Positions 12,030 to 39,611 of a stretch of 50,591 nucleotides of DNA are shown here, piece by piece; position 1 is the stretch's first letter, and each line of letters starts with the position of its first letter. This DNA comes from Eubacteriales bacterium (GTDB taxonomy: Bacteria; Bacillota; Clostridia; Lachnospirales; Lachnospiraceae), in the NCBI GenBank assembly GCA_030524715.1, contig JAUNGB010000016.1:16943-67533 (forward strand), written 5' to 3'. The notes under the pieces are model-generated. The model was not told where the DNA came from. It did no database searches and saw only the letters and a list, made by a program, of their open reading frames with translations. A program made the position numbers and the translations under genes.

Positions 12030-12071
12030 AAAAATGTATCCTTTCTTTTATGATAGTAAGAACATTATAAG

Positions 12072-12100
12072 TTGACCGGGACAAAAAAACAAGGTATAAT
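12072..12100 (+). promoter_or_regulatory. Promoter for the SipW-like gene
   Basis: TTGACC (12072-12077) and TATAAT (12095-12100) are 17 bp apart. The leader to the ATG at 12223 is about 115 nt. Confidence 0.75.
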
Positions 12101-12222
12101 AAGGAAGTGCAATCGAAAACAGTATGTTTGGGGTTACTGTTTGGGCAAAATAATAAGCAGGTTAAAAAAGAAACGAACAACGTAACTAAATAAGCTAAAA
12201 GCAGAAGTGAGGAAAAGTACCA

Positions 12223-13272
12223 ATGTCGAAATTTTTGAAATTTATCGTACATTTCGTTGTGATATGTACCATACTTTGTGTGGTTGCTCTTGCAGCACCG
12301 CCGTTTTTCGGAGTAACTACAGTTATTGTGGATAATGCGGGCGAGGGGTCGAACCTGCCTATGGGTTCCGTGACCTACGCGATTCCGGTAAAGACAGATG
12401 AGGTCAATGCAGGCACTCCGATTCTGGTACAGGATGAATCCGTAACATACCGTTATAATATCGTAAGCCTGGATATGGAAAATCATACTGCGGCAGTTGT
12501 GGATCCTACCGTATCCGCCTCAGAGACTATTCCTGTTTCTGTGAAGAATTATGTGCCCAAGGTAGTGATCACCATTGGATATCTGGGATATCTCCTTGTA
12601 GCTACGGAGAGTATTGAAGGTCTGATCGTTCTCGGCCTTGTAGTTCTGTTCCTGGTTATCCTCTATGTCATTGCGGAGCTTCTGAAAAAGGATCCCGCGG
12701 ACAACGATTCCGCGGAGGATGATTATCCTGCGGAAAACCTTAAGAGCAAAAAAGAACTGAAGCGCGAAGAAAAAGAACGTGCCAAACGTATGAAGGAGGA
12801 AGACCGTCAGATGCTGCGCGGTGAAAAGCAGCGCAAAAAGGCGGAAAAGAAAGAGAAAAAGATTATTAAAACCGGTGGCTTTGTGGACGAAATCTATGAG
12901 GAAGAGCCGGAGGAAGAGGAAGAACCTGCTGTAAATGTGCAGGCGGCCACAAGCGAGGCCCATGCATTGCTTAAAAAGGAAATTGCCGCCGCAACTGCTG
13001 AGGAACCGCAGCCGGTACGCAGGGTAAAGAAAGAAGTGCAGGCGCCGCCCAAGGCAGCTCCAAAGGAAGTGAAGCGCCTTGAGGAAGAAGAGGAAGTGGA
13101 ACCGGTGGAGATCAAGAAGATGGCGATTCCGGTCTGGTCCGCAGCCCAGCTTGCGGATAAAGCAAAAAAAGATGGGGACGCGCCGGATATTGTGAAGGAT
13201 GAGATTACCAATGTCACTCTGTTTGATTATTCAGATATCATCGGCGGAGAAGACGATCCTTCTCAGAACTGA
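12223..13272 (+). CDS. SipW/S26-like membrane protein without catalytic residues, with long charged cytoplasmic tail
   Basis: A 349-aa protein. Residues about 7-30 form an N-terminal membrane anchor. Residues about 38-135 follow the pattern of SipW-type signal peptidases: LPMGSVTYAIPV (compare LPVGSLVVVEPV), a middle RYNIVSLDMENHT strand (compare HRVVEID), then VPKVVITIGYLGYLL. In my alignment the catalytic Ser (SMxPT) and the His of HR are both replaced. A second membrane helix (GLIVLGLVVLFLVILYVIAEL) is followed by about 190 residues very rich in Lys and Glu, likely cytoplasmic and helical. The role is unknown; a scaffold or chaperone for secretion is one idea. Its last 93 bp and terminator are duplicated 3.8 kb downstream. 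Confidence 0.6.
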   Translation: MSKFLKFIVHFVVICTILCVVALAAPPFFGVTTVIVDNAGEGSNLPMGSVTYAIPVKTDEVNAGTPILVQDESVTYRYNIVSLDMENHTAAVVDPTVSASETIPVSVKNYVPKVVITIGYLGYLLVATESIEGLIVLGLVVLFLVILYVIAELLKKDPADNDSAEDDYPAENLKSKKELKREEKERAKRMKEEDRQMLRGEKQRKKAEKKEKKIIKTGGFVDEIYEEEPEEEEEPAVNVQAATSEAHALLKKEIAAATAEEPQPVRRVKKEVQAPPKAAPKEVKRLEEEEEVEPVEIKKMAIPVWSAAQLADKAKKDGDAPDIVKDEITNVTLFDYSDIIGGEDDPSQN

Positions 13273-13341
13273 TTAACTGGAATTGGATAAAGATTTACGT
13301 GGACGGCCAATACCGCTGATTAGCAGAGGTATTGGCCGTTT
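13180..13341. repeat. 162-bp perfect direct repeat, copy 1
   Basis: This copy covers the last 93 bp of the SipW-like gene plus its terminator. It is base-for-base identical to 16989-17150, offset 3809 bp. The flanks differ immediately on both sides (C/T before, A/G after). Confidence 0.97.
13303..13341 (+). terminator. Terminator of the SipW-like gene
   Basis: A 12-bp stem pairs ACGGCCAATACC (13303-13314) with GGTATTGGCCGT (13328-13339), followed by a short T run. The same hairpin is present in the second repeat copy at 17112-17150. Confidence 0.75.
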
Positions 13342-13459
13342 AGTTAGTATGCTTCAGCAAGGATTACCGCTTGCAGATAAATACAGGGATCATGAGCTAA
13401 AAGGTAAATATATTAATATGCCTTTGTACGCCGGGAGGTATAAACAGTACCCGATGTAA
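13340..13459 (+). pseudogene. Fragment of a YafQ/RelE-type mRNA-interferase toxin gene
   Basis: Reading from 13340, the frame gives VSMLQQGLPLADKYRDHELK and then GKY, the central part of YafQ-family toxins (compare the usual LPxKYRDHxLxGxY). Both ends are missing: the 5' end is cut at the 162-bp repeat, and after GKY the frame enters unrelated sequence (containing half of the 33-nt palindrome near 13437-13451) and stops at 13457-13459. It is a short remnant of a toxin-antitoxin locus. The call rests on about 25 residues. Confidence 0.5.
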
Positions 13460-13586
13460 ATGAGAAAAGCCCTTCGTTGAAAACTGAGAAATTTAGTGCT
13501 TTTTTCAGGGAAAAGTGCTTGGCAAAAACACTTGCAGGAAGCAAAAGGGCTGTGTTAAAATGGAAAAAAAGAAAAGGAGGGGTTTC

Positions 13587-15212
13587 ATGAAGAAGATACT
13601 TACTTGGATGTTGGCTTTGATTGCGTCGGTGTGCTTTTTTTCTGTAAGTGCAAAGGCGGAATCCTACGTGGCTGGAGGGGATTGCGGAGATGACTTGAAG
13701 TGGTCTTTGGATTATGATGGTACGCTCTTCATTTATGGAGAGGGAGAGATGAATCGTTATAAAGCGTCATGGAGGCATGAATACGGGGATAAAATCAAAA
13801 CAGTTATGTTTGAAAAAGGCGCAACAACCATTTCGGAAGATGCATTTTCAGGTTGTAAGAACCTAAAGAAAGTAACGTTACCGTCTACGATGAAGCGTAT
13901 TGATGATTATGCATTTTTAGGGTGTACATCGTTAGAATCTATTAATCTTCCGGAGGGACTTACCAGTTTGGGAATGGCAGCTTTTGTGAACTGTACTTCT
14001 CTTTCGAAAATTCAGTTTCCAAGTACATTGGAAGAATTGCCCTGGGAAGGCTTTCGCGGAAGCGGCCTTGTCACTGTCAGTATCCCATCCGAAATAAAAA
14101 AAATCCGTATAGAGTGTTTTATGGACTGCCCAAAACTGACGACGGCTGTAATCAATGGCTCAAATCTGGAAATACCCATGTCGGCATTTGCGGGCTGCAC
14201 CATGCTTAATACAGTAAAAATGGGTAATGGCGTTACGAAAATTGGGACGTGTGCTTTTAATGGCTGTACCATGCTTCGCAATCTGACAATAGGAAACAAT
14301 GTCAGAGCCATAGATAACACTGCATTTCGAGGATGTACCGCCTTAAAAGAAGTTTCCATACCCGATCGGGTAGAAGAGATTGACGGTGGATGGCCAAATG
14401 CAGGTGCTTTTAGTAACTGTACATCTCTTGAGAAATTGACGTTGGGAATAGGCGTTTCCAAAATTGGCGCAACTGCATTTGAAAATTGCACTTCTTTAAG
14501 GGAAGTTTATTTCTGTGGTTCTGCTCCGAAATTTGATGATTGGAAACCTATTTTTTCAGGATGCAAAAGTTTCACGGCTTATTATCCGTCCGGCGATAAG
14601 ACCTGGGATCGATCTAAATTGACGAATCATGGTGCAGAGCGTGTGGAGTGGAAAAATTGGACAGTGCCTCTGGACTACTTTACACCTGTATTAAAGAGTC
14701 TGAATCCTGCTGCAAAGGGGATTAAGGTATCATGGAATCAATTAAATGGCGTCAAAGGCTATGAGATATGGAGACAATCAGGGAATGGATCTTTTACAAA
14801 GGTGAAGACCATTACCAGTCCGTCTACGCTTTCCTGGACAGATACCTCGGTTGCAAACGGTAAACGGTATACATATAGAATTTATGGCAAGAATGGAACT
14901 CAACTAAGTAAGGTATCCAATGCTAAGTATATGTATTTCCTTTCACAGAATACGGCATCTCTTTCCAAGAGCGGTTCCTATATTGTGGTGAAATGGAAGA
15001 AAAATTCACAGGCAACAGGTTATCAGATACAATATTCGAAAAAGAGTAACTTTTCAAATGCAAAATTACTCGGAGCCAAAGGCGCGTCAAAGACTTCCGG
15101 GAAAATTAAACCGGGAAAAGGGAAATTTTATATCCGTGTCAGAACTTATAAAAAGGTTAATGGCGTAAACAGTTATTCGGCATGGAGCAGCGTGAAGACC
15201 ATTACCGTATAA
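13587..15212 (+). CDS. Secreted BspA-like leucine-rich-repeat protein with fibronectin type III domains
   Basis: A 541-aa protein with a signal peptide (MKKILTWMLALIASVCFFSVSAKA). Residues about 60-330 are BspA/TpLRR-type repeats of about 23 residues (FSGCKNLKKVTLPSTMKRI, FLGCTSLESINLPEGLTSL and so on). The C-terminus has two fibronectin type III-like domains (SLNPAAKGIKVSWNQLNGVK; GSYIVVKWKKNSQATGYQIQ). No LPXTG anchor is seen. The ATG at 13587 is chosen because GGAGGGG lies just upstream; earlier in-frame starts would add a Lys-rich leader. Such proteins bind host matrix or other bacteria; the ligand is unknown. It lies inside the repeat-flanked island. Confidence 0.85.
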   Translation: MKKILTWMLALIASVCFFSVSAKAESYVAGGDCGDDLKWSLDYDGTLFIYGEGEMNRYKASWRHEYGDKIKTVMFEKGATTISEDAFSGCKNLKKVTLPSTMKRIDDYAFLGCTSLESINLPEGLTSLGMAAFVNCTSLSKIQFPSTLEELPWEGFRGSGLVTVSIPSEIKKIRIECFMDCPKLTTAVINGSNLEIPMSAFAGCTMLNTVKMGNGVTKIGTCAFNGCTMLRNLTIGNNVRAIDNTAFRGCTALKEVSIPDRVEEIDGGWPNAGAFSNCTSLEKLTLGIGVSKIGATAFENCTSLREVYFCGSAPKFDDWKPIFSGCKSFTAYYPSGDKTWDRSKLTNHGAERVEWKNWTVPLDYFTPVLKSLNPAAKGIKVSWNQLNGVKGYEIWRQSGNGSFTKVKTITSPSTLSWTDTSVANGKRYTYRIYGKNGTQLSKVSNAKYMYFLSQNTASLSKSGSYIVVKWKKNSQATGYQIQYSKKSNFSNAKLLGAKGASKTSGKIKPGKGKFYIRVRTYKKVNGVNSYSAWSSVKTITV

Positions 15213-15250
15213 TATGCGGTATAAGAGTAAAGCTTATTATTATAATTAAG

Positions 15251-15310
15251 AAGGGACTGCTTTAGTGCGGTCCTTTCCTAATTAATAGATTGATAATATA
15301 TTGCGATGAG
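15251..15310 (+). terminator. Terminator plus conserved tail (module copy A)
   Basis: The hairpin AAGGGACTGC/GCGGTCCTTT (15251-15275) ends the BspA-like gene. It is followed by a tail to ATATTGCGATGA that is similar to 16476-16507 and 24561-24593. The unit is discussed as a repeated module in the findings. Confidence 0.65.
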
Positions 15311-15323
15311 TTACTGTTTAGAC

Positions 15324-15571
15324 AATAACGGACAGGTTACACTTCCACCTGCCATTCTTTATATATACTGCATAGCAATACAACTATCAGCGCAGGAATC
15401 AGAAAGGGTCTACCGTACAGATAATGTTTCTGATCTTCCACACAACATTATGCTCGAAAGAGCCAGAAAATTATCCTGTACTTTAGCAGATTCCTTTAAA
15501 GCCTGCATACATATCAGGAAAATGTACAGGTATATAAAATAGCAGATTGAAGTGTAACCTGCCCGCTATTG
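15324..15571. mobile_element. MITE-like element with long inverted repeats
   Basis: AATAACGGACAGGTTACACT at 15324-15343 pairs with the inverted copy at 15552-15571 (core GTGTAACCTG, tail CGCTATT), with two mismatches over 22 bp. The pairing continues inward with gaps (CTGCCATT..TTATATA on the left against CTGCTATTTTATATA on the right). It is about 248 bp with no recognisable protein. The 78-codon open frame inside (15306-15542) has no ribosome site. Halves of the 33-nt palindrome (GTTACTGTT at 15310; AACAGTAAC near 15590) lie just outside both ends. Confidence 0.6.
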
Positions 15572-15762
15572 GTTGACACCGCAGATAGAACAGTAACCTT
15601 TCGTTTGTGAATTTTCTGAAAAATTTTTCCTTGCGCTTGTAAAGTGCTAAATTCGATGGTAGAATTAAATTAAAGAAGTGTAGGCTGGAAGTTGGGTATA
15701 TTAACTTGCTGGTAAGAGCGTGAGTACCTTCACTTCTGTGAAAAATGAGGTGATTTGCTTAG
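15572..15762 (+). other. Intergenic leader upstream of the PIN gene
   Basis: Holds the half palindrome ending AACAGTAAC (about 15590-15598) and a possible stem between AGAAGTG (about 15675) and CACTTCT (about 15730) just ahead of the PIN gene. I see no clear promoter consensus. Confidence 0.35.
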
Positions 15763-16200
15763 ATGAGAGTTTATTTGGACAATTGCTGTTTTAATCGACC
15801 ATATGATGATCAGTCATATGTGAGTATTTCTTTGGAAACTCAAGCGAAACTTCATATACAGGATTTGATTCGGAATGGTCAGTTGGAAATGTCATCATCA
15901 TATATGCTTGTGTATGAGAATGGCCAAAATCCTTATGAGATGAGAAGGAATGCTATAACAGAATTTATTGAGAAGAATACCACCGTTTATGTTAGTGATG
16001 CCAGATTGGAAGAAGTATCCAAGCAGGCACATGAGATTATGAAAACTGGCGTAAAATATAAGGATGCGTGTCATGTAGTATGTGCGATTATGTCAGACTG
16101 CAAATATTTTCTTACGACTGACCGTAGACTGTTAAAGTACCAAACAGATAAGCTAAAGATGATGAATCCGTTAGACTTTATCAGGGAATTGGAGGTGTAA
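15763..16200 (+). CDS. PIN-domain ribonuclease toxin (VapC-like)
   Basis: A 145-aa PIN-domain protein. The acidic metal-binding residues are visible: Asp6 (YLDNCCFNRP), Glu52 (VYENG), Asp101 (YKDACHV) and Asp120 (TTDRRLL). PIN toxins of this kind cleave RNA. The ATG follows GAGGTG. The 76-aa gene downstream starts after 3 bp and probably is its partner. The toxin comes first, the reverse of most VapBC loci. It may help keep the island in the chromosome (inference). Confidence 0.8.
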   Translation: MRVYLDNCCFNRPYDDQSYVSISLETQAKLHIQDLIRNGQLEMSSSYMLVYENGQNPYEMRRNAITEFIEKNTTVYVSDARLEEVSKQAHEIMKTGVKYKDACHVVCAIMSDCKYFLTTDRRLLKYQTDKLKMMNPLDFIRELEV

Positions 16201-16203
16201 TGC

Positions 16204-16434
16204 ATGAGTTCGAATACAGTAGAGATTATGAATAAGGGAATGAATTGTCTTCTGGAAAAACTTGGCGTTGTAGAGACAGAGCAGTTTATTTCTATTATAA
16301 TAAGAGAGAAATTTGATTATACAAAATGGCAGCAAGAACATTTTGATGAGCTGACTCCGGAGCAGATAGATGATGGGGCTAAAAGATATGTAGAAGAGCA
16401 TCCCTTTAGAGGGGCGGCTAAAGTTGTACTGTGA
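16204..16434 (+). CDS. Small protein, likely antitoxin partner of the PIN protein
   Basis: A 76-aa protein of mixed composition (MSSNTVEIMNKGMNCLLEKL; FISIIIREKFDYTKWQ). There is no clear DNA-binding motif by eye. Its position, 3 bp after the PIN gene, and its small size point to an antitoxin, but I do not recognise the family. A ribosome site lies in the end of the PIN gene (GGAGG at about 16190). A terminator follows at 16449-16475. Confidence 0.6.
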   Translation: MSSNTVEIMNKGMNCLLEKLGVVETEQFISIIIREKFDYTKWQQEHFDELTPEQIDDGAKRYVEEHPFRGAAKVVL

Positions 16435-16445
16435 ATTTTCGCTAT

Positions 16446-16507
16446 AAAAAAGGACTGCCTGAAAGGCGGTCCTTTCCTATTAACATATTGATAATACCCT
16501 GCTATGA
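16446..16507 (+). terminator. Terminator plus conserved tail (module copy B)
   Basis: An 11-bp stem AAAGGACTGCC/GGCGGTCCTTT (16449-16475) ends the PIN unit. The tail after it (TTCCTATTAACATATTGATA, then the ATACCCTGCTATGA end) matches 24560-24593 at 32 of 34 positions. Confidence 0.75.
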
Positions 16508-16528
16508 AATTTTAATTTTTTGCGGGGA

Positions 16529-16557
16529 TTGACATATTTGTAGGGCTTGCGTATAAT
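16529..16557 (+). promoter_or_regulatory. Consensus promoter of a mobile-element leader
   Basis: TTGACA (16529-16534), a 17-bp spacer and TATAAT (16552-16557): a perfect sigma-A promoter, the strongest in the window. It drives a structured leader ahead of broken mobile-element genes. Confidence 0.85.
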
Positions 16558-16567
16558 AATAGTAGCA

Positions 16568-16714
16568 GGTAGGCAACTACCTTGAAAAGCAGTCCGCTCC
16601 CAGTCATGCGGAATATAAATAGGCTGTGTAAACGAGGTTCGCTCCCGGACATGTGAATAATAAATAGGCCGTGGAAAAGTTTTTAAGCCTCTTGCCGGGG
16701 ACGGCAAGAGGCTT
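16568..16714 (+). ncRNA. Structured leader: small hairpin, two tandem 45-nt units, strong hairpin
   Basis: After the promoter come a small hairpin (GGTAG/CTACC, 16568-16581) and two imperfect direct units offset 45 bp (starting near 16592 and 16637, each with CGCTCCC, CATG and AAATAGGC). A 12-bp hairpin then pairs AAGCCTCTTGCC (16685-16696) with GGCAAGAGGCTT (16703-16714), followed by AAGGAG. The layout suggests a regulatory leader or attenuator of an integrative element. The family is not identified. Confidence 0.5.
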
Positions 16715-16732
16715 AATCTATACAAGGAGAAA

Positions 16733-16934
16733 TGCCGCTTATGGAAATAATAACGGACAGCCTGTACGGATTGCAGACCCGAAGATAATACAGGAAATGG
16801 AAAAGAACGCAAGAAAAGTTATCAATCTGTTACATAGAGGGATTCGCTTTACACCGACGCAGCCGGACGTAATTAAAATTGAGAAAATGATGTTAGCAGA
16901 ATTGCAGTCAGATAAGGACAGGCAATCAGAATAA
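16733..16934 (+). pseudogene. Frameshifted small integrative-element gene
   Basis: From the ATG at 16742 (or 16733) with AAGGAG upstream, the frame stops after about 15 codons. One base shifted, the frame reads NNNGQPVRIADPKIIQEMEK and continues for about 60 residues to a stop at 16934. One extra A in the GAAAT run near 16745 would join the start to this frame (M-E-N-N-N-G-Q). The product resembles a small conserved protein of clostridial integrative elements, recalled only by pattern. It is most likely inactive. Confidence 0.5.
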
Positions 16935-16951
16935 AGACAGGAGCGTTGAAT

Positions 16952-17011
16952 ATGGCAAATCGGAAAATGCCCGATTATGAAACCATATGCGCCGGATATT
17001 GTGAAGGATGA
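16952..17011 (+). pseudogene. 5' fragment of an integrative-element helix-turn-helix gene, cut at the repeat junction
   Basis: An ATG with an upstream AGGAGCG-like site starts MANRKMPDYETICAG, the beginning of a helix-turn-helix protein found in clostridial conjugative elements (family recalled from pattern). At 16989 the sequence switches into the second 162-bp repeat copy, giving six foreign residues and a stop at 17009-17011. Confidence 0.55.
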
Positions 17012-17150
17012 GATTACCAATGTCACTCTGTTTGATTATTCAGATATCATCGGCGGAGAAGACGATCCTTCTCAGAACTGATTAACTGGAATTGGATAAA
17101 GATTTACGTGGACGGCCAATACCGCTGATTAGCAGAGGTATTGGCCGTTT
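16989..17150. repeat. 162-bp perfect direct repeat, copy 2
   Basis: Identical to 13180-13341. It holds the last 93 bp of the SipW-like gene and its terminator (hairpin 17112-17150) without the rest of the gene. The first five bases, GCGCC, also fit the mobile-element reading frame it interrupts, so they may be shared microhomology. Confidence 0.97.
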
Positions 17151-17163
17151 GTTTGCAGAAGGT

Positions 17164-17196
17164 GTTGCTGTTCACACCTACGGTATAAACAATAAC
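17164..17196. repeat. 33-nt palindromic intergenic repeat, copy 2
   Basis: Arms GTTGCTGTTCACACC (17164-17178) and GGTATAAACAATAAC (17182-17196) flank a 3-nt centre, the same size and plan as 5173-5205. Confidence 0.6.
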
Positions 17197-17286
17197 CAGA
17201 GGCTATAATTATTATGTTACAGCAGCGATTTTTGTTGCATAAAAAGTGCAATTGATATATAATTAAGGATAGAAAGGAGAATTGGC

Positions 17287-17688
17287 ATGAGAAACAAAGG
17301 ATTTGAATTAACTAAAGGAGAGGAAGTGATGATGGAGATTTTCTGGGATGCCGAACGTCCTCTGACAACCATGGAAATCTCGGAAATGACAGACGAGTTT
17401 AACGACAGTTATATACACAGGCTGGTGAAAAGTCTGGAAAAAAAGGAAATGCTTAAAATCAGCGGCCTGGTAAAATCAGGCAAGCAGTATGCAAGACAAT
17501 TTGCGCCAACTACGACACGGGAGGAATATGGGGCATTTGTAATGCAGAATCTGGGAATCCGTGATGAAAAGGCTTTGGCAAAGGTTGCGGTCGCCATGGT
17601 GAGTCGTTTCGTAGATGATGAAAACAACAAAAACGAGGCTCTGGTGAAGGAACTGGAAAACATTGTGGAAGAACTGAAGAAAGGTTAA
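17287..17688 (+). CDS. BlaI/MecI/CopY-family transcriptional repressor
   Basis: A 133-aa protein with the winged helix of the BlaI family (LTKGEEVMMEIFWDAERPLT, MEISEMTDEF, SYIHRLVKSLEKKEML) and a helical C-terminal dimer part. BlaI proteins repress beta-lactam-type resistance genes and are cleaved on a signal from a BlaR1 membrane peptidase. The ATG has AAGGAG upstream. The next gene is a truncated BlaR1-like sensor, so signal-dependent release is probably lost. The operator cannot be defined with confidence. Confidence 0.8.
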   Translation: MRNKGFELTKGEEVMMEIFWDAERPLTTMEISEMTDEFNDSYIHRLVKSLEKKEMLKISGLVKSGKQYARQFAPTTTREEYGAFVMQNLGIRDEKALAKVAVAMVSRFVDDENNKNEALVKELENIVEELKKG

Positions 17689-17702
17689 ATAACAGAAAAA
17701 GT

Positions 17703-18044
17703 ATGAGCATTACGTTTTTTTCGTTTTTTATGGCTGTTTTCTGGAGCAGTATAGCCATCCTTCTTTTTTGTTCCTGCCGTAAACGGCAATGGTTTATCCG
17801 TCACTGCGGAATCAGTATAATGGCAGTTTTATATTTGGCATGTATGCTTCGCCTTCTGGTTCCTGTGGAAGTGAACGGAGTGGCATATGTAAAATTACGT
17901 GGGGCTTTTTCTTCCATTTATGAATTAGTTGGCCTTAAAAAAAGAGAAGTGTTTGGGCTGGAATGCACGGTATTGCAGATGCTTATTGCTGTCTGGATAG
18001 CAGGAAGCCTTATTAAAGGAATACATTGGGGGATTTGTTATTAA
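17703..18044 (+). pseudogene. Truncated BlaR1-type (M56) sensor, N-terminal fragment
   Basis: A 113-aa frame begins like the N-terminal membrane part of M56/BlaR1 sensors (FSFFMAVFWSSIAILLF, then a second hydrophobic segment with MLRLLVPVE). It stops after GICY, well before the HExxH peptidase domain and the sensor domain, which are absent from the following sequence. It sits 15 bp after the BlaI gene, the usual place of blaR1. It is a remnant, or at most a short membrane protein. Confidence 0.6.
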
Positions 18045-18126
18045 TTGCTAAGAAGCTGTCCGCAGTTTGAATTTTGGAAAAGGTAGTATTTTTTACATTA
18101 CTGTAATAAAAATGAAGGTGAATCTC

Positions 18127-19101
18127 ATGAAAAAGAAAATATTTATTACCGGATATATGTTTGCTTTTTTATTCTGCTGTAGTAGAGTATATGCAGAAAC
18201 AGGCACGGATGCAGAAGAATACATGAAGAGTGCAATAGAAAAAATGACGGAAAATCCAAGGATGATCGGCACGCCTGAAATTGATGATGCAAAAGAGTAT
18301 TTGGTGTCGGAACTAAAAAACTGGGGCTATGATGTTCAGGAACAGGATTTTTTCTATGATGATAGGCTGAATGAAAAGGCTATTCAAAGCAGAAGCAATA
18401 AGGAAGAGTATCTCAGAGGCGCCTTTACCGGGAGTGAAGGTGATAAAAGGGGAACCAATATCATAGCTGAGAAAGCTGGCTCTTCCTCCGATAGGACGTT
18501 GATCATCAGCGCCCATTATGATACCTGCGAAAATTCTCCGGGAGCAAATGACAATGCTTCAGGGGTGGCAGTTTTGCTCAATGCGGCAAGGATGTACAGC
18601 CAGAAGGACTATCCTTTTAATATCAGGTTTATCTGCTTTTCCGGTGAAGAAGCATGGTTTGCAGGCTCTCGATATTATGTTTCTTCTTTAGAGGATTCAG
18701 GGTATGATAATATTATGGGTGTGATTAATATTGATTCTGTAGCAGAGAAAAGTAATCTGGATTACTGGGTCATGGTATCAGAAGGAAAAGAAGTTGTTGA
18801 TGAGAGCGGAACTGTTGATTTCGAACCGATTGCGAACGAGATTTCTGAATTGATCACCAAAAAAACCGAATATCAGCTTGTATGTCAGATGAATTCGGAT
18901 CACTATCCGTTTTCGCTGCTTGGGATTCCGGCTGTTACAATAACCCAGGATCTATCAGAAGAGCTTCACATAAATTCTTCCGAGGATACAATGAGCTATA
19001 TTGACAGTAATCGTCTTGTCGAAGTGTTTTCAACAGTTGACGATATCATCCAAAAGGAAACAGCTCTTGCTTCCCTGGCGGGAGCTACTGCTGCAAATTA
19101 A
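18127..19101 (+). CDS. Secreted M28-family zinc aminopeptidase
   Basis: A 324-aa protein. Residues 1-23 form a signal peptide ending VYA. The M28 zinc site is visible: His130 and Asp142 (SAHYDTCENSPGANDNASG), Glu174/Glu175 (FSGEEAW), Asp203 (NIDS) and a C-terminal His near 281. The enzyme should remove N-terminal residues from peptides outside the cell. The ATG at 18127 is used because GAAGGTGA lies upstream; longer in-frame starts would spoil the signal peptide. It stands downstream of the BlaI/BlaR1 remnant and may have been its regulated target (inference). Confidence 0.8.
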   Translation: MKKKIFITGYMFAFLFCCSRVYAETGTDAEEYMKSAIEKMTENPRMIGTPEIDDAKEYLVSELKNWGYDVQEQDFFYDDRLNEKAIQSRSNKEEYLRGAFTGSEGDKRGTNIIAEKAGSSSDRTLIISAHYDTCENSPGANDNASGVAVLLNAARMYSQKDYPFNIRFICFSGEEAWFAGSRYYVSSLEDSGYDNIMGVINIDSVAEKSNLDYWVMVSEGKEVVDESGTVDFEPIANEISELITKKTEYQLVCQMNSDHYPFSLLGIPAVTITQDLSEELHINSSEDTMSYIDSNRLVEVFSTVDDIIQKETALASLAGATAAN

Positions 19102-19104
19102 TCT

Positions 19105-19122
19105 AAAAAAGGACTGCCTGAA
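19105..19122. repeat. Half copy of the terminator module at the left edge of the ABC element
   Basis: The 18 bases AAAAAAGGACTGCCTGAA equal the head of module B at 16446-16463, then diverge. The matching tail appears at 24560-24593. Confidence 0.6.
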
Positions 19123-19222
19123 GGGGAACACTTCGTAAGGAAGTTGTTTCCCTTTCGCCTTGTAATCAGCCAGAATGATTGAATTGTAGGGAAAAATTCA
19201 AATCATATGGAGGAATTACAAA

Positions 19223-19384
19223 ATGGCAAAATCATTATTTGAAAGGCTAGTAGAAGACATGAAACAGGCACAGGGTATCACAGAACAGTTAAAGGCTGAA
19301 AATCAGTTTTTGTGGGTGCAAAGGCTCAATAATATACGGGCGTGTGCAAAGGAGATTGTGGAAAAAGAAATTATCTTTTCTTAG
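19223..19384 (+). pseudogene. Internally deleted TnpV transposon protein
   Basis: A 53-codon frame with GGAGG upstream reads MAKSLFE and then directly ends in the TnpV pattern ITEQLKAENQFLWVQRLNNI, closing KEIIFS. Full TnpV proteins are about 110-130 aa; the middle is missing in frame. TnpV is an accessory protein of Tn4451-type serine-recombinase elements. It marks the left part of the element that carries the ABC genes. Too short to be listed by length-limited gene finding. Confidence 0.65.
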
Positions 19385-19556: not shown

Positions 19557-20167
19557 GTGAGAAATCTGAAAAAAAACAGCAAAAAGCCAGAAGTAAGAAA
19601 AAAGAACTGATTGATATTGCCGCTCAGTTATTCGCTGAGAAAGGTTACGAAGCCGTATCCGTGCGGGATATTTTAGATATTGTAGGCGGTGCGCCGGGAA
19701 TGTTTTATTATTACTTTAAATCGAAACAGGATATTTATATTGCAGCTATGGAGCAATATATTTCTGAACGTCTTGAACGGAAATGTAAAATTATTGAAGA
19801 TGATACAGTTCCTTTTGATGAAAAGTTAAGTGTTTTCCGAAGCATGATAGTAGAGGATATCAAAGGCTATGCCGAGCGTTTTGACCCGAAAGCAGACACT
19901 TCTATATCCGATACGTCCTATAAACTCTGGGATTTGGTGCAAATGCTAAATCGAATGGTAAAGCCTTATGCCAAGTTTATGATGCAGGGAATCAGGGAGG
20001 GAAAAATAAAAAATACATTAGGCGTTACAGAAGAATCTGCAGAGGCGCAGGCAGTATTCATTCTATATGGCTGTTGGGGAATGATATATAACGGTAAATT
20101 TACGAAAGACAGCACAGAATATGAAATGGAAGATATTTTAAAAGTAACAGACAAATTCTTTCATTAA
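19557..20167 (+). CDS. TetR/AcrR-family repressor with a disrupted start region
   Basis: The frame from about 19568 to 20167 encodes a TetR-type protein: a helix-turn-helix with KELIDIAAQLFAEKGYEAVS, then VRDIL and GMFYYYFKSKQDIY, and an all-helical ligand domain. No ATG, GTG or TTG lies in this frame before the internal GTG at 19661, which would remove half of the DNA-binding helix. A GTG at 19557 is one base out of frame; one more A in the eight-A run at 19569-19576 would join them. It is frameshifted, or made through slippage on the A run. It likely controls itself and the ABC genes downstream. Confidence 0.65.
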
Positions 20168-20196
20168 CTCTAAAAATCACATAAGGATACCACATT

Positions 20197-20239
20197 ACAA
20201 CGGGAATGTTCCGAAAGGGCATTCTCGTTGTGGCGTTTT
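20197..20239 (+). terminator. Terminator between the TetR gene and the ABC genes
   Basis: ACAACGGGAATG (20197-20208) pairs with CATTCTCGTTGT (20220-20231), followed by GGCGTTTT. Confidence 0.6.
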
Positions 20240-20299
20240 AGGGGTACAGAACGAACTCGGTCTGAAATGAAAATATGAAGAAAGAGAGGAATGTCCAAA

Positions 20300-22108
20300 A
20301 TGAAACAAAAAGAAAAAACAAAACAGGGAATATCGAGGCTGATAGAAATATCAGGGGAAAATAATTCTGCCCTGATATCCAGTATCGTATTGTCTGTTAT
20401 CGGAACACTATGCCAGCTTGTTCCGTTCTGGTCTGTCTATCGTGTGATGGCGGAATTACTAAAGCATACGGTTACGGGAGATGCTATATCTTCAGACTCA
20501 CTTATCCGTTTGGCTGTTTACGGTCTTATAGGACTTCTGGCAGGATACTTAGCTACATATCTGGGAGGTATTAAAGCCCACACATTCGCTTATCGTGTGA
20601 TTTGCGGCGTGAGATTAAAGGTGGCGGAACACATCGGGAAATTGCCGATGGGATATGTATCGAATAATTCCGTAGGTAAAATCAAACAGATTTTAGATGC
20701 CGATGTGGAACAGATAGAAGGTTTTCTTGCTCATCAACTTCCCGACCTTGTGAGTACGGTTGTTATGCTGATTGCGATGTTTGTTGTCATGTTTATGGAG
20801 AATGTCTGGCTAGCGTTTGCCTGCCTGATACCAATCGTCGTAGGTTTTGTGTGCCAGTTTGCGGTTATGATTAAAATTATGAAAAGCGGAGGCGTTCAGC
20901 AAAATTTTGATGCACTGGAAAAAATCAGTTCTTCATCCATTCAATATGTGAAAGGAATGCCGTCCATCAAAATCTTTGGACAGACAGTGAAATCTTTTCG
21001 TCAGTTTTACGATGATATTATCAGTTACAGAGATTTTACAACAAGCATGACAGAGGTTATTCGCCCCGGCTTTGTGCGCTTTCGGATGTTTGTGTTATCG
21101 GTTGCTACGTTTATTGTACCTGTAGGATTACTCTTGTTTTTGCGAAATCCAGAAGATATTTCCTTTGTAATTACATATTTGTTTTTCCTGATACTGGCTC
21201 CTGCGGCGGCAACGCCGACCTTAAAACTAAGGGGATTTTCGGAGAGCATGAATATCATTACGGAAGGTGTAAAGCGTGTAGAATCCGTACTGAATGAAAA
21301 GCCTTTGCAGGAAGTATCAGAGGGGAAAGTACCAAAAAAGCATGATATTACTTTCTCGGATGTCCATTTTTCTTATGATGATAGTGGGAAAGCCATTTTA
21401 AACGGAGTTTCTTTCACAGCACGTCAGGGTGAAATTACTGCTTTGGTTGGAGCGTCAGGCGCAGGCAAATCTACCATAGCAGAACTGATACCGAGATTTT
21501 GGGATATTACCGATGGAAGTATAATGATTGGTGGCATTGATATCAGGGAAATACATCAGATTGATTTAATGGAACAGATGTCTTTTGTATTTCAGGAAAG
21601 TTATTTGCTGTCAGATACCATTTACAATAACATTGCTTTGGGAAAACCCGATGCCACAAAAGAACAGGTAGAACGAGCTGCAATGGCGGCGCAATGTCAC
21701 GATTTTATCTTGTCGCTCCCAGAAGGCTATCAGACCAAAATCGGAGATGGAGGTATTTATCTGTCTGGCGGTGAAATGCAGCGTGTATCTATAGCAAGAG
21801 CAATTTTAAAAAATGCGCCAATATTGATTTTGGACGAGGCAAGCGCCTATGCAGATGCAGAAAATGAGCATGAGATGCAGCTGGCATTGACAGAGCTTAT
21901 CAAAAACAAGACGGTCATTATGATTGCCCACAGACTGGCGACGATTTGTAATGCAAATCAAATACTTGTTGTAGCAGATGGAAAAATAGCAGAAGCAGGC
22001 ACACACGAACAGTTGCTGCAGAAGAATAAGCTCTATGCGGCTATGTGGAAAACGGGTATGGAATCTGCTAACTGGCGTATGGAGCATGGCAAGGAGGACG
22101 TACAATGA
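20300..22108 (+). CDS. ABC transporter, fused permease/ATPase, subunit 1
   Basis: A half-transporter of about 602 aa. The N-terminal 320 residues hold about six transmembrane helices. The ATPase domain has Walker A GASGAGKST, the Q-loop (FVFQESY), signature YLSGGEMQR, Walker B ILILDEASA and the H-loop (AHRLAT). The ATG at 20300 has GAGAGG ten bases upstream; the ATG at 20291 is too close to it. It overlaps subunit 2 in an ATGA, so a heterodimer is expected. The codon use is more AT-rich than the neighbouring core genes. The substrate is unknown; drug or peptide export is the usual role with TetR control, but siderophore-type import cannot be excluded. Confidence 0.85.
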   Translation: MKQKEKTKQGISRLIEISGENNSALISSIVLSVIGTLCQLVPFWSVYRVMAELLKHTVTGDAISSDSLIRLAVYGLIGLLAGYLATYLGGIKAHTFAYRVICGVRLKVAEHIGKLPMGYVSNNSVGKIKQILDADVEQIEGFLAHQLPDLVSTVVMLIAMFVVMFMENVWLAFACLIPIVVGFVCQFAVMIKIMKSGGVQQNFDALEKISSSSIQYVKGMPSIKIFGQTVKSFRQFYDDIISYRDFTTSMTEVIRPGFVRFRMFVLSVATFIVPVGLLLFLRNPEDISFVITYLFFLILAPAAATPTLKLRGFSESMNIITEGVKRVESVLNEKPLQEVSEGKVPKKHDITFSDVHFSYDDSGKAILNGVSFTARQGEITALVGASGAGKSTIAELIPRFWDITDGSIMIGGIDIREIHQIDLMEQMSFVFQESYLLSDTIYNNIALGKPDATKEQVERAAMAAQCHDFILSLPEGYQTKIGDGGIYLSGGEMQRVSIARAILKNAPILILDEASAYADAENEHEMQLALTELIKNKTVIMIAHRLATICNANQILVVADGKIAEAGTHEQLLQKNKLYAAMWKTGMESANWRMEHGKEDVQ

Positions 22109-23835
22109 AAAAACTATTTTATGCAATTACCTGTAACGACCCGAAAAGGCTGATAAAACCGATTATTTCAAATGCGCTTGCCAATTTGTCAAATTTGCTG
22201 CCATTCTTGTGTACGGCTTATATCATCAGCCAAATATATGATTACTTTATGACAGGAAATTTAAACCGTTCCCACTTATGGCTTTCATGGGGCGGAATGG
22301 TTATCTGCTTTATCATTACTTATCTTTTGGAGAATATTGCCTGCAAAATTACTTATCGGGATGGATATATGACATCTGCCGACGGGCGTGTAAAATTAGC
22401 GGAGCATATCAGAGAACTGCCGCCTGGCGTATTGATGGGTAAATCTTCTGGCGAAATCGGTAATACGATGATGAACGATTTTTCTAAAACTGAATCGGCA
22501 ATGACGCACATCCTGCCTCAGATTGTCAGTGGTGTACTCGTTGCGGTCATTGCGTCCGTTGCCATGCTCATAGCAGACTGGAGGATGGGAATAGCCATGT
22601 TTTGCGGATTTCCGATTGCGATTGTACTTATGCTTGGTATGCGTAATCTGGAGCGAAAACTGGATGACCGACTTGCGGCATCAAGAATTGAACAGGCAAG
22701 TAAGCTTCAGGAATACCTGTATGGTATGAGAATTATAAAAGCCTACAATATGCAGGGGGAAAACTTCGGTAAATTAAAATCGGCGTGTACGGATTATCGT
22801 GACGCTTGTATAAAACTTGAGAGTGGAATCGGTCCGCTGAATTTTGTTGCTACCGCTCTTTTGCGATTAGGTCTGCCGCTTATGACCATAGTTGGTGTGT
22901 TTTTAATAAGCGGAGGAACGCTTACAATCCCTGAATTTGTCATGTTTTTGTTAGTTGGCACTCGTGTGTTTGACCCGCTTTCCGTAGCAATTATGAATTA
23001 TTCAGAATTAACGATGTGCGGCATGGCAGGGGAACGAATCAGCCGTTTGCTTGACGAGCCGACTATGGGCGGCAAAAAAGATGCGCCAACGACACACGAC
23101 ATTGCCTTTCAGAATGTTTCCTTTGGGTATGGAACAAAAGAGGTTCTCCATGATATTAACGCAACATTCAGACCAAATACAATGACAGCTCTTGTAGGAC
23201 TGTCAGGTTCAGGAAAAAGTACGATGTTGAAATTGGCGGCACGATTCTACGACCCCACCGCAGGAAAAATCTTATTTGGAGGCGTTGATGAGAAAGAAAT
23301 TATGCCAGACAAACTGATGAAGCAAATATCAATGGTATTTCAGGATGTGTATTTGTTTCAGGATACAGTTGCAAATAATATCCGTTATGGGCGTGAAAAT
23401 GCAACGCAGGAGGAAATTGAAAATGCAGCCCGTCTTGCAAATTGTTATGACTTTATTATGCGTATGCCGCAAGGATTCGACACGATGATTGGAGAGGGAG
23501 GTTCTACTCTTTCGGGCGGTGAAAAGCAGCGGATTTCCATTGCAAGAGCTATGTTAAAGGATGCGCCTGTCATTTTTCTGGACGAAGCGACTTCCTCTCT
23601 TGACCCAGAAAATGAAGCGGAAATACAGCAGGCAATCAGCCGTCTGATTAAAGGAAGAACGGTTGTGGTAATCGCCCATAGATTAAAAACAATCACTTCC
23701 GCTGATAATATTTTTGTGTTCGATAATGGAAGGATTGTCGAACGGGGAACACATAACGAACTTCTATCCCATTGTGGATTGTATGCAAAGCTCTGGAAAT
23801 TGCAGACATCTACCGAGGGTTGGAGGATAAATTAA
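22105..23835 (+). CDS. ABC transporter, fused permease/ATPase, subunit 2
   Basis: A 576-aa half-transporter with six predicted helices and a complete ATPase domain: Walker A GLSGSGKST, Q-loop (MVFQDVY), signature TLSGGEKQR, Walker B VIFLDEATSSLD with the catalytic Glu, and AHRLKT. Both subunits keep canonical site residues, so both ATP sites may be active. It is translationally coupled to subunit 1 by a 4-bp overlap and followed by an ECF S-component-like gene after a short gap. Confidence 0.88.
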   Translation: MKKLFYAITCNDPKRLIKPIISNALANLSNLLPFLCTAYIISQIYDYFMTGNLNRSHLWLSWGGMVICFIITYLLENIACKITYRDGYMTSADGRVKLAEHIRELPPGVLMGKSSGEIGNTMMNDFSKTESAMTHILPQIVSGVLVAVIASVAMLIADWRMGIAMFCGFPIAIVLMLGMRNLERKLDDRLAASRIEQASKLQEYLYGMRIIKAYNMQGENFGKLKSACTDYRDACIKLESGIGPLNFVATALLRLGLPLMTIVGVFLISGGTLTIPEFVMFLLVGTRVFDPLSVAIMNYSELTMCGMAGERISRLLDEPTMGGKKDAPTTHDIAFQNVSFGYGTKEVLHDINATFRPNTMTALVGLSGSGKSTMLKLAARFYDPTAGKILFGGVDEKEIMPDKLMKQISMVFQDVYLFQDTVANNIRYGRENATQEEIENAARLANCYDFIMRMPQGFDTMIGEGGSTLSGGEKQRISIARAMLKDAPVIFLDEATSSLDPENEAEIQQAISRLIKGRTVVVIAHRLKTITSADNIFVFDNGRIVERGTHNELLSHCGLYAKLWKLQTSTEGWRIN

Positions 23836-23859
23836 AACATTATGAAGGAGGATTCCAAA

Positions 23860-24372
23860 ATGGAAAATACAAGAAAAACAAAATCGTCAAGAGGTGCAAT
23901 CGCAGCGGGCGTATTTATCGCATTGTATCTTGTCACTTATTTTATTGTTGGGGCAATTACAATGCCTGTTGCGGTACTTTTTGTACTGATGCCTGAAATT
24001 GTTGCGCTGCTTGCAGCTCCTACATATCACATGATGCTGACAAAATCCCCGTCATGGATTTCTATTTTAATTGCAGCTTTTCTTCCGAGTTTGTTGCTGA
24101 TTGCGTCTGGGCATATTCCGATTGCGCCATTGGTTGCAATACCAGCAGGAATCATAGCTGCCCTTATTGCGAAAAAAGGAAATTATAAAAGTTTTAAATG
24201 GAATACTGTCAGCCATATGTTTTTTTCATTAAATTTATTTGGTGGTTTTATCCCGATTTGGGTAATGCGTGACTATTTCTTTGAGGATACCTTTGAACGT
24301 GGAATGAGTCAGGAGAATTGTCAGAAAAACGCAGGGAGCTGTCAAAAGCGAAAAAGCGTGTTAAGGAGATAG
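23860..24372 (+). pseudogene. Truncated MptD-like ECF S component joined to recombinase sequence
   Basis: The ATG at 23860 has GAAGGAGG upstream. The first 150 residues are a multi-helix membrane protein with the pattern of the MptD/Trep_Strep ECF S-component family (FIALYLVTYFIVGAITMPVA, GHIPIAPLVAIPAGIIAALI, FFSLNLFGGFIPIWV). After ERGMSQ near 24309 the frame runs out of phase through serine-recombinase DNA and stops at 24372. ECF ATPase and T-component genes that should follow are absent. So the S protein lost its C-terminus and partners. Confidence 0.6.
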
Positions 24373-24569
24373 ACAACCTTATCCAGAAAATCTATGAGGA
24401 CAATGTTATCGGTAAAATCTCCGATGAACGCTTCGCCACAATGTCTATGGCATTTGAGGAAGAACAGCAACGGTTGAAAGCTGCTATCCCAGAAATGGAA
24501 ATATACCTTGAAAGCGAAACAGATAAAAGCGACAGCTTGCAGAGGTTTATCGACAAGGTTTCCTATTAA
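24309..24569 (+). pseudogene. C-terminal fragment of a large serine recombinase
   Basis: In another frame the DNA reads ELSEKRRELSKAKKRVKEID, then KIYEDNVIGKISDERF and a coiled-coil stretch, ending FIDKVSY and a stop. This is the coiled-coil region near the C-terminus of Tn4451/TndX-type recombinases. The catalytic and zinc-ribbon parts are missing, and the usual continuation (VxxYTxIQELTPEML-like) is cut. It marks the right end of the element begun by the TnpV remnant. Confidence 0.7.
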
Positions 24570-24593
24570 TATATGGATAATACCCTGCTATGA
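24560..24593. repeat. Tail copy of the terminator module at the right edge of the ABC element
   Basis: Matches 16474-16507 at 32 of 34 bases, ending GATAATACCCTGCTATGA. It directly follows the recombinase fragment and ends 31 bp before the S10 promoter. Confidence 0.7.
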
Positions 24594-24624
24594 TATTGTT
24601 CCTGAAAAAAAACAAAAAAAGTGC

Positions 24625-24653
24625 TTGCATTTGAAAATGACATTGTGTATACT
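24625..24653 (+). promoter_or_regulatory. Promoter of the S10 ribosomal operon
   Basis: TTGCAT (24625-24630), 17 bp, TATACT (24648-24653). The leader to rpsJ is about 220 nt. Confidence 0.75.
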
Positions 24654-24659
24654 AACAAG

Positions 24660-24872
24660 TGCTGTGACATGATAGCTATGAAGCGTGAGGTTGCTGTCCG
24701 CAGAGGCAGGTTTTCCGTGGAGCGAATGTCAAGTTAGGAAACTGACGACAAGTCACTGTACAAGTTCAGAAAGCCATCTGGGGATGGGCACGCGCTGGTG
24801 AGTACCAGGACACGCGTGGAGATGTGTACAGTCGCCGCTTGTCGTACCGATAACCGAGTACGAATAGGAGGA
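24660..24872 (+). ncRNA. Structured leader of the S10 operon, likely autoregulatory
   Basis: A long closing helix pairs CGACAAG (about 24746) with CTTGTCG (about 24838), continued by CTGTAC with GTACAG. Inside lies a further hairpin around CACGCG and CGCGTG (24787-24820). An upstream region also folds (GCAGAGGC..). S10 leaders in other bacteria bind L4; which protein acts here is not known. Confidence 0.55.
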
Positions 24873-24882
24873 GACTTTTTTT

Positions 24883-25200
24883 ATGGCAAATCAGGTAATG
24901 AGAATCACATTAAAAGCTTATGATCATCAGTTAGTAGATGCATCTGCTGCAAAAATCATCGATACTGTTAAGAAGAACGGAGCAACCGTAAGCGGTCCGG
25001 TTCCGCTTCCTACTAAGAAGGAAGTTGTTACAATTCTTCGCGCAGTTCACAAATACAAAGACAGCCGTGAGCAGTTTGAGCAGCGTACACATAAGCGTCT
25101 GATCGATATCCTGACACCAACGCAGAAGACAGTAGATGCACTGTCCAGACTGGAAATGCCGGCTGGCGTTCACATCGATATCAAGATGAAAACCAAATAA
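24883..25200 (+). CDS. rpsJ: Ribosomal protein S10
   Basis: A 105-aa protein of the 30S head and also the NusE antitermination factor. It starts [20 protein letters not shown] and ends with the conserved [13 protein letters not shown] stretch. AGGAGG precedes the ATG. It is the first gene of the S10-spc block, behind a structured leader and promoter, and it lies 290 bp after mobile-element debris. Confidence 0.97.
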
Positions 25201-37291: not shown

Positions 37292-37317
37292 TAGACGGAT
37301 GACACAGGAGGTTAAAA

Positions 37318-37536
37318 ATGTCAAAAGCAGATGTAATCGAAGTAGAAGGCACCGTACTGGAAAAACTGCCGAATGCGATGTTTAAAGTGGAACTGGAGAA
37401 TAAGCATGTAGTGCTTGCGCATATCAGCGGAAAGCTGCGCATGAACTTTATCCGTATTCTTCCGGGAGATAAAGTAACGATCGAACTTTCTCCGTATGAT
37501 CTGTCCAAAGGAAGGATTATCTGGAGGGACAAATAA
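37318..37536 (+). CDS. infA: Translation initiation factor IF-1
   Basis: A 72-aa OB-fold protein that binds the 30S A site. [20 protein letters not shown] and the end [13 protein letters not shown] are hallmarks. AGGAGG is upstream. rpmJ normally follows closely; here it lies 11.56 kb away. Confidence 0.97.
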
Positions 37537-37540
37537 GGAA

Positions 37541-37585
37541 TTGAGGGGGCAAGCTCGGAGTTGCGAAGCCCGCATGCCCCCTCAA
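37541..37585. repeat. Perfect 11-bp inverted repeat after infA
   Basis: TTGAGGGGGCA (37541-37551) pairs with TGCCCCCTCAA (37575-37585), with GCTTCGC-type pairing inside. No T run follows, so it may be an intergenic palindrome at the left edge of the inserted cassette, or a processed terminator. Confidence 0.55.
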
Positions 37586-37686
37586 ACTCCCCCTGTTGGG
37601 CACGCAGGAAGCCTATGTTGTGGAAGGTTGGACTGTTCTGGCATATAGATGATACGCCGGGGCAGTTTTTTTTAAAGGATTTTATT

Positions 37687-39311: not shown

Positions 39312-39366
39312 GCGCGTAGGTTGGAATATTCTTGATATTCCAACTGCACAGGTGGAAGAATTTTTG
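39275..39366 (+). pseudogene. 3' fragment of an unknown gene overlapping the kinase end
   Basis: In another frame the DNA reads NAAAIADAKVFKRVG then WNILDIPTAQVEEFL and a stop near 39366. The composition looks like a real protein C-terminus, but I cannot name the family. It contains a 10-bp inverted repeat (GTTGGAATAT/ATATTCCAAC, 39321-39345). It may be leftover DNA from an insertion. Confidence 0.3.
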
Positions 39367-39408
39367 TAAAAGAATTTCTGTAATAGAGATTCTATAATAA
39401 AATAAGAG

Positions 39409-39468: not shown

Positions 39469-39611
39469 GTCAGGGCGCTGTAAGATTGGTTTGGTAAAAT
39501 ACAATCGTATCAAAGGTAAGCTTACCAAAGGCAGCCCGTTGGGAACATGCGGCGTGCTTTTGGGCAGCATGGAGACGGTGGTTATCCGCCGGATGACGAG
39601 GAGGATTGAGA

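What the first reader, a model, noticed from the sequence alone, without database searches (positions are those of the whole stretch)
13180..17150. Perfect 162-bp direct repeat brackets a mosaic island next to the SipW-like gene
The last 93 bp of the gene and its terminator occur twice, identical, 3809 bp apart. Between them lie broken pieces of at least three mobile or toxin genes plus a BspA-like surface gene. The repeat starts inside a coding region and the outer five bases (GCGCC) fit both junction partners. This looks like a recent insertion or duplication that left a gene end behind, not a classic short target-site duplication.
Basis: seen in the sequence. Interest (0 to 1): 0.72.

Follow-up and report, generated by a model that had tools for sequence, protein, structure and literature searches.

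The report
Gene-end duplication inside stacked cargo
A gut bacterium, apparently a Blautia, carries about 11 kilobases of intact and broken acquired genes between a conserved membrane-protein gene and its main ribosomal-protein genes, and a perfect 162-base copy of that gene's end inside the block looks like the scar of one recent, additive acquisition by known recombination routes.

Summary
The perfect 162-bp repeat (13180-13341, 16989-17150) is real. The 3.8-kb island is only the left third of a larger insert. In relatives the gene sits directly before the S10 ribosomal operon: 44 of 46 measurable loci (61 fetched) have 288-729 bp between gene and rpsJ, and 0 of 58 tested has a second gene end; the window has 11.6 kb. 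Inside the insert a second repeat lies interleaved with the first: a terminator plus 35-bp motif at 15247, 16445, 19104 (left part) and 24559 (right part, abutting the S10 leader). In the genome all four matches with E < 0.01, the query included, lie in this locus. The order is R-cargoA-TM-TM-fragment-R-cargoB-T..M-S10, so versions of the same intergenic region appear stacked in tandem. The island's right joint fuses a broken HTH_16 gene of a mobilisation region to the gene end at GCGCCG, six bases that a plasmid relative also has there. Best reading: additive integration, with one exchange in the shared gene end and one microhomology joint. No integrase or transposase was recognised in the 12 ORFs scanned there. 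Direction and order are inferred; sibling strains and reads were unavailable; a strain-merge artefact is not excluded.

The parts
   Evidence: relatives at 61 loci; gap to rpsJ 288-729 bp in 44 of 46 measurable
13180..13341 (+). R1: last 93 bp of the gene plus terminator
   Evidence: identical to R2
13342..13417 (+). YafQ-type toxin fragment joined directly to the terminator
   Evidence: PF15738 E 2e-4, profile 27-54/88, below cut-off; TIGR00053 E 0.005, below cut-off
13515..15212 (+). BspA-like LRR/Fn3 surface-protein gene, open
   Evidence: LRR_5 E 2e-78; 56% identical relative on contig C121 of the same genome
15247..15309 (+). T+M copy (terminator and motif)
   Evidence: 78% to 16445-16507
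15323..15571 (.). dispersed MITE-like element with 41-nt inverted arms
   Evidence: I1; matches, some partial, on 15 contigs of the genome, C88 included
15763..16200 (+). PIN-domain-like ORF
   Evidence: PF01850 E 0.002, below cut-off
16204..16434 (+). small partner ORF
   Evidence: 58% identity over 65 aa to a stretch of G014 (L102); no family
16445..16507 (+). T+M copy
16585..16674 (+). two 45-nt repeats, read as a CptI-like RNA antitoxin (inference from position)
   Evidence: D4, 73%; before a CptN remnant; 82% to the same region in G077
16671..16934 (+). CptN toxin remnant: C-terminal sequence, interior lost
   Evidence: NF047359 profile 102-150/150, E 4e-6, below cut-off; PDB 4rmo_A residues 108-151, E 5e-8; longer relative ORF of 194 aa in G077
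16952..16988 (+). first 12 codons of an HTH_16 gene of a mobilisation region, cut by R2
   Evidence: 93% (102 bp from 16893) to G036, 86% (56 bp) to a Monoglobus plasmid gene
16989..17150 (+). R2: second copy of gene end plus terminator; GCGCCG joint at its left edge
17287..17688 (+). BlaI-family repressor gene
   Evidence: PF03965 E 8e-7
17703..18044 (+). ORF after BlaI; looks like a short BlaR-type membrane part (recalled label)
   Evidence: 34% to the ORF after the BlaI relative in G063; no Pfam family
18067..19101 (+). M28-family peptidase gene
   Evidence: PF04389 E 3.5e-36
19104..19125 (+). T of a further T+M copy, cut off by a TnpV-type piece
   Evidence: 95% over 22 bp, E 0.004
19223..19384 (+). 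TnpV remnant
   Evidence: PF14198 profile 62-111/111, E 1e-16
19661..24372 (+). TetR-like remnant (below cut-off), two ABC transporters, cut Trep_Strep membrane protein
24318..24569 (+). C-terminal remnant resembling DUF4368 proteins (large serine recombinases, recalled)
   Evidence: 49% over 77 aa to plasmid proteins annotated DUF4368; no Pfam hit at cut-off
24559..24597 (+). M of the last T+M copy, directly before the S10 leader
   Evidence: 92% to 16473-16511
24605..24900 (+). conserved S10 promoter/leader and start of rpsJ: end of the insert
   Evidence: 78-94% to 14 of 14 relatives, matches starting 24603-24634; Rfam RF03136 at 24670-24751, 91.9 bits

Best explanation
The interval between the gene and the S10 operon is a place where acquired cargo has been stacked. 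Shown: in relatives it is a 0.3-0.7 kb spacer; here 11.26 kb lies in it; sequence from both edges of the spacer (R on the gene side, T+M on the S10 side) recurs inside, in the order R, TM, TM, R, T..M. Inferred: two versions of the region (cargo A = YafQ piece, BspA, PIN pair; cargo B = BlaI, M28 peptidase, later invaded by a TnpV/ABC/recombinase element) were brought into tandem by an additive event. DNA that carried the gene end followed by cargo A recombined through the identical gene end (one homologous exchange). Its other end, a mobilisation-region fragment cut inside an HTH gene, was joined at GCGCCG to the resident gene end, 162 bp before the cargo B joint. The resident gene end was therefore pushed downstream as R2. 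A circle closed by the same GCGCCG joint and inserted by one crossover in R gives the same product. The island should be removable by exchange between the 162-bp copies, giving a 3,809-bp circle and a cargo-B-only chromosome (prediction).
For: Empty site in 44 of 46 measurable loci and no second gene end in 58 of 58 tested. S10 leader begins only near 24605. Interleaved T+M: four matches with E < 0.01 in the 5.28-Mb genome, the query itself included, all in this locus; the motif core occurs 3 times in 716 kb sampled, all here. The HTH|gene-end joint shares GCGCCG: gene GACGCGCCGGAT, plasmid relative ATACGCGCCGCC, window ATATGCGCCGGAT. R copies are identical while measured T+M pairs differ by 8% and 22%, so the R event looks the latest (inference; conversion between copies could also keep R identical). 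Precedents, passages read: duplication of part of the homologous end in 56 of 60 clones by PCR, 109-950 bp in the 14 sequenced (PMC3240628); stacking of older modules behind new ones proposed for Vibrio T6SS loci (PMC5361080).
Against: No genome with cargo A alone or cargo B alone was found; the held collections have one genome per species. Both cargo blocks start at the same base after the terminator, which needs a reason of its own. The T+M copies are older and not explained by the single R event, and that T+M is the native spacer of this species is inferred from its place before the S10 leader only. No donor for the YafQ joint was found. In G036 the overlap at the joint is only 5 bp. Homologous exchange and microhomology joining are inferred from the joints. 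In PMC3240628 the duplications were ascribed to single crossovers, not to HFIR proper.
Confidence: 0.5

Rival explanations
1. In-place tandem duplication: an unequal sister exchange at GCGCCG duplicated the gene end plus cargo A, and a later deletion removed the second cargo A, leaving R2 joined to cargo B.
For: Needs no foreign donor for the R event; the same GCGCCG joint is expected; nearby genes show internal losses, e.g. CptN and TnpV.
Against: Needs a second deletion whose left end falls exactly at the end of the terminator, where cargo A also starts; does not account for the interleaved T+M copies.
Confidence: 0.2
2. Assembly or amplification artefact: two strains with different cargo at this site were merged into one contig, or a chimeric molecule formed at the 6-bp overlap.
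For: The genome is listed with 5.02% contamination in 210 contigs; two alleles in a row is what a merge could look like; amplification chimeras can form at short overlaps (general knowledge).
Against: A 6-bp overlap is too short for a k-mer or read-overlap join (general knowledge); the contig runs on as conserved S10 operon; genome size 5.28 Mb lies within the 1.6-6.7 Mb of the genus. No read data were available to test.
Confidence: 0.15
3. Site-specific integrative element that uses the 3' end of the gene as attachment site and carries a replacement gene end; integrase lost.
For: The layout (whole gene, new end, island, old end) is that of elements in gene 3' ends such as e14 in icd (recalled).
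Against: No integrase recognised in the 12 ORFs scanned between the copies; 44 of 46 relatives are empty and the two larger spacers carry no gene-end copy.
Confidence: 0.1
4. T+M is a recombination site and the locus is a small cassette array, each cassette being gene(s) plus T+M.
For: T or T+M follows BspA, the PIN pair and the M28 gene, and M abuts S10; no other significant match in the genome.
Against: No match in 298 other family genomes sampled, only one of them of this genus; within the genus only weakly tested; measured copies differ by up to 22%; no recombinase assigned; T is an ordinary terminator shape.
Confidence: 0.05

Closest known systems
Homology-facilitated illegitimate recombination and truncated-circle single crossover (PMC3240628; passages read)
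   Same: Integration through one homologous end; most products carried a duplicated stretch of that end, 109-950 bp in 14 sequenced clones; here 162 bp.
   Different: There an engineered plasmid in E. coli, the duplications ascribed to single crossovers and true HFIR rare; here a natural locus, donor unknown, event inferred.
Stacked immunity-gene arrays of Vibrio cholerae T6SS clusters (PMC5361080; passages read)
   Same: A conserved upstream stretch is proposed as anchor, new modules are added next to it and older material, including an effector 3' end, is shifted downstream.
   Different: There effector/immunity modules; here unrelated cargo, much of it broken, between a membrane-protein gene and the S10 operon.
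Genomic islands in gene 3' ends, e.g. e14 in icd (recalled; no call)
   Same: Duplicated gene end with the whole gene kept.
   Different: No integrase recognised in the ORFs scanned, no conserved use of the site in relatives.
CptIN type III toxin-antitoxin, Eubacterium rectale (PMC4627078: search listing and start of abstract only; PDB 4rmo by sequence)
   Same: C-terminal CptN sequence preceded by direct repeats of RNA-antitoxin kind.
   Different: The toxin gene here has lost its interior; it is a passenger fragment. Number and length of the E. rectale repeats were not checked.

Membership tests
Transposon/IS insertion with target-site duplication | Transposase gene in the insert | tested here: not met
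   no transposase family in 12 ORFs between the repeats, 6 on each strand; shorter ORFs not scanned
Transposon/IS insertion with target-site duplication | Short duplication (a few to about 14 bp, recalled) with inverted ends at the boundaries | tested here: not met
   162-bp duplication; of the inverted pairs of 20 nt or more only the terminator hairpin inside R touches the boundary
Integrative element in a gene 3' end | Integrase between the att copies | tested here: not met
   a recombinase-like remnant lies outside, at 24318-24569
Integrative element in a gene 3' end | Empty site in relatives and direct repeat at both ends | tested here: met
   equally expected under additive recombination
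Additive homology-facilitated integration | One end homologous, duplicated in the product | tested here: met
   162-bp R copies identical
Additive homology-facilitated integration | Other end joined at microhomology between foreign and resident DNA | tested here: met
   GCGCCG shared by gene and the HTH gene of a plasmid relative; CGCCG only in G036
Additive homology-facilitated integration | Donor and recipient forms each exist | not testable with these tools
Additive homology-facilitated integration | RecA-dependent exchange in the homologous end | not testable with these tools
   needs genetics
Integron-type cassette array | Integrase present | tested here: not met
   none recognised in the ORFs scanned of the insert; the rest of the genome was not searched for one
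Integron-type cassette array | Recombination sites recurrent in several loci or genomes | tested here: inconclusive
   T+M significant only in this locus of the genome and absent from 298 family genomes, but the genus was only weakly tested

The most novel reading that the evidence does not exclude
The spacer before the S10 operon in this Blautia species is a recurrent cargo-landing site in which each acquisition re-creates the spacer's own edge (gene end plus terminator, or terminator plus 35-bp motif), so that cargo is added without separating the S10 operon from its promoter or the upstream gene from its terminator: an integrase-free accretion locus running on edge homology.
Probability: 0.15. 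Interest if true: 0.6.

Novelty: new member of a known kind. Interest (0 to 1): 0.33.

Why it matters
It gives a natural, sequence-readable example of how cargo may be stacked beside essential ribosomal genes without a recognised integrase, with one joint still legible at single-base level. If sibling strains show cargo-A-only and cargo-B-only forms, the locus would be a clean natural case for studying additive integration in gut Firmicutes. It does not change any known mechanism.

Tried and rejected
Plasmid and phage collections with the whole 3,971-bp repeat-to-repeat stretch: one plasmid record with a 56-bp match, no phage match. Viral contigs for the terminator joint: one match in a sequence with no other similarity to the window; for the motif: none. 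Rfam on 12000-18000 at E <= 5: one hit far below its gathering score. PADLOC on the PIN pair, the CptN remnant and the G077 relative: nothing. A donor for the YafQ joint: none; of 64 genomes 3 others matched and their matches begin at about 13427, downstream of the fragment. A 67-bp, 91% direct repeat around an AAA-like ORF (47127 and 48893) was first taken as a second gene-end duplication; rejected, because it has further copies on 6 other contigs. Dropped from counts: 15 of 61 relatives in which the stop of the gene or rpsJ was not on the locus. A first gap table overstated gaps where only the N-terminal part matched; one search replaced it. One search scored only 4 candidates per genome, so its absences are weak; focused searches were made for two edges. 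One script of mine used a start one base off for the HTH piece (no effect on a result); one search gives the right start, 16952.
Full report
Observation. It holds the last 93 bp of ORF 12223-13272 and a terminator hairpin. As a control I compared 716,416 bases of the same genome within contigs (400,000 and 316,416 bases, the latter including the window). They listed 40 repeat pairs of at least 60 bp, 38 of them direct, and this is the only pair with 100% identity. About 86% of the genome was not compared in this way.

The organism. Same-genus genomes hold contigs of 66,882, 22,482 and 15,319 bases with this gene, and contigs of exactly these lengths with this gene are titled Blautia sp.; I therefore take the genus to be Blautia (inference).

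Where the insertion really ends. Relatives of the protein of ORF 12223-13272 were found at 61 loci of GTDB genomes, by title mostly Blautia or Lachnospiraceae, some named only to Clostridia, Eubacteriales or Eubacterium. In the 12 stretches taken, rpsJ (S10), rplC and rplD follow the gene directly. Measured from the stop of the gene to the rpsJ start, 46 of 61 loci could be measured: 44 have 288-729 bp, the median of all 46 being 408.5 bp; Blautia schinkii has 1,453 bp and Blautia parvula 2,312 bp. In the window the distance is 11,610 bp. The S10 leader aligns with 14 of 14 relatives at 78-94% identity, the matches starting between 24603 and 24634, and Rfam places the S10-Clostridia leader at 24670-24751. 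Of 58 relatives tested none has a second copy of its own gene end on the locus held. The B. schinkii spacer is made of long inverted repeats without a large ORF, and the B. parvula spacer holds a lactate/malate dehydrogenase gene; neither shows a gene-end duplication.

What the island contains. From left to right: a fragment of a YafQ-type toxin gene fused straight to the terminator (below cut-offs); an open BspA-like LRR/Fn3 gene with a 56% relative elsewhere in the genome; a MITE-like element with 41-nt inverted arms, with matches on 15 contigs of the genome, C88 included; a PIN-like ORF (below cut-off) and a small partner ORF; two 45-nt repeats followed by a CptN type III toxin remnant that keeps only C-terminal sequence, a longer relative being present in genome G077; and the first 12 codons of an HTH_16 gene. 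That HTH gene lies downstream of a MobC gene and a relaxase gene both in a Monoglobus plasmid record and in genome G036, so the right end of the island is a piece of a conjugative or mobilisable element. In 12 ORFs between the copies, six on each strand, no transposase or integrase family was recognised; shorter ORFs were not scanned.

The joint. In the plasmid relative the HTH gene reads ...GAAACCATACGCGCCGCCGTT; the resident gene reads ...GGGGACGCGCCGGATATT; the window reads ...GAAACCATATGCGCCGGATATT. The two partners share GCGCCG. In G036 the match is shorter, CGCCG.

A second, interleaved repeat. A search of the whole genome with 16440-16512 gave 14 matches at E <= 10; the four with E < 0.01, the query itself included, all lie in this locus: 16440-16512, 24559-24597 (92%), 15247-15309 (78%) and 19104-19125 (95%, E 0.004, terminator part only). 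The unit is a terminator (T) and a 35-bp motif (M). It follows BspA, the PIN pair and, as T alone, the M28 peptidase gene; its last M directly abuts the S10 leader. A TnpV/ABC/recombinase element sits between the T at 19104 and the M at 24559, as if it had split one T+M unit (inference). The motif core was found at three places in 716 kb of sampled sequence, all here. The motif with up to 3 mismatches was found in none of 298 other genomes of the family, of which only one is of this genus; in the genus it was only weakly tested, as part of longer queries. The order along the window is R1, cargo A, T+M, PIN pair, T+M, CptIN/HTH piece, R2, cargo B, T, element, M, S10. R marks the gene-side edge of the spacer, and T+M, as I read it, the S10-side edge.

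Interpretation. Interleaving of the two edge repeats is what one expects when different versions of the same intergenic region are placed in tandem. R1 and R2 are identical, while the measured T+M pairs differ by 8% and 22%, so the R event is probably the latest. One homologous exchange in the shared gene end plus one microhomology joint at GCGCCG yields the observed structure in a single step; a circle with the same joint, inserted by one crossover, yields the same. In E. coli conjugation tests 56 of 60 clones scored by PCR had a duplication of part of the homologous end, 109-950 bp in the 14 sequenced, which the authors ascribed to single crossovers of truncated circles (PMC3240628; passages read). 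For Vibrio T6SS clusters a similar additive route was proposed to explain stacked older modules (PMC5361080; passages read). I met no paper on this locus, but my searches were narrow and their lists capped: CptIN, type III toxin-antitoxin, Blautia (8 of 10 listed), natural transformation with Blautia and competence genes (1 of 1), BspA-like, ribosomal protein operon, insertion hotspot, genomic island (6 of 42 listed).

Results against this reading. No single-cargo form was found, because one genome per species is held. Cargo A and cargo B start at the same base after the terminator, which the model takes as given. The assembly is listed with 5.02% contamination, so a merge of two strains cannot be excluded without reads. 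In-place duplication followed by deletion would also fit the R pair. The T+M history is unresolved, and no relative shows that T+M is the native spacer.

Verdict. I take it as a well-preserved example of known recombination outcomes rather than a new kind of element.

Noticed in passing
15311-15600 and contigs C195, C10, C22, C155, C159, C106 and others: MITE-like dispersed element, about 200-260 bp; some of the five copies printed begin near GTTACTGTT and end near AACAGTAAC or variants.
   Followed up: partly
17162-17196: 33-35-bp palindrome-like dispersed repeat (GTTACTGTTCACACCTACGGTGTAAACAGTAAC type) just after R2, with 10 further matches in the genome; its ends resemble those of the MITE-like element.
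   Followed up: partly
47127-47192 and 48893-48959: 67-bp, 91% direct repeat around an AAA/nuclease-like ORF (recalled label) just upstream of rpmJ; the repeat has further copies on 6 other contigs.
   Followed up: partly
37300-48900: Two-component genes, ABC transporter genes, a repetitive surface-like protein, two SPFH-like genes and an AAA-like ORF lie between map and rpmJ; rpsJ to rpmJ is about 24 kb here against about 16 kb in G004 (gene labels recalled).
   Followed up: no
L108 10940-12400: Blautia schinkii has a 1,453-bp spacer built of long inverted repeats at the same place.
   Followed up: no
G000 C106 33,000-52,000 and C88 1-199: Direct repeats about 10.6 kb apart (88-91%) on C106 and a 66-bp tandem array at the end of contig C88.
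   Followed up: no
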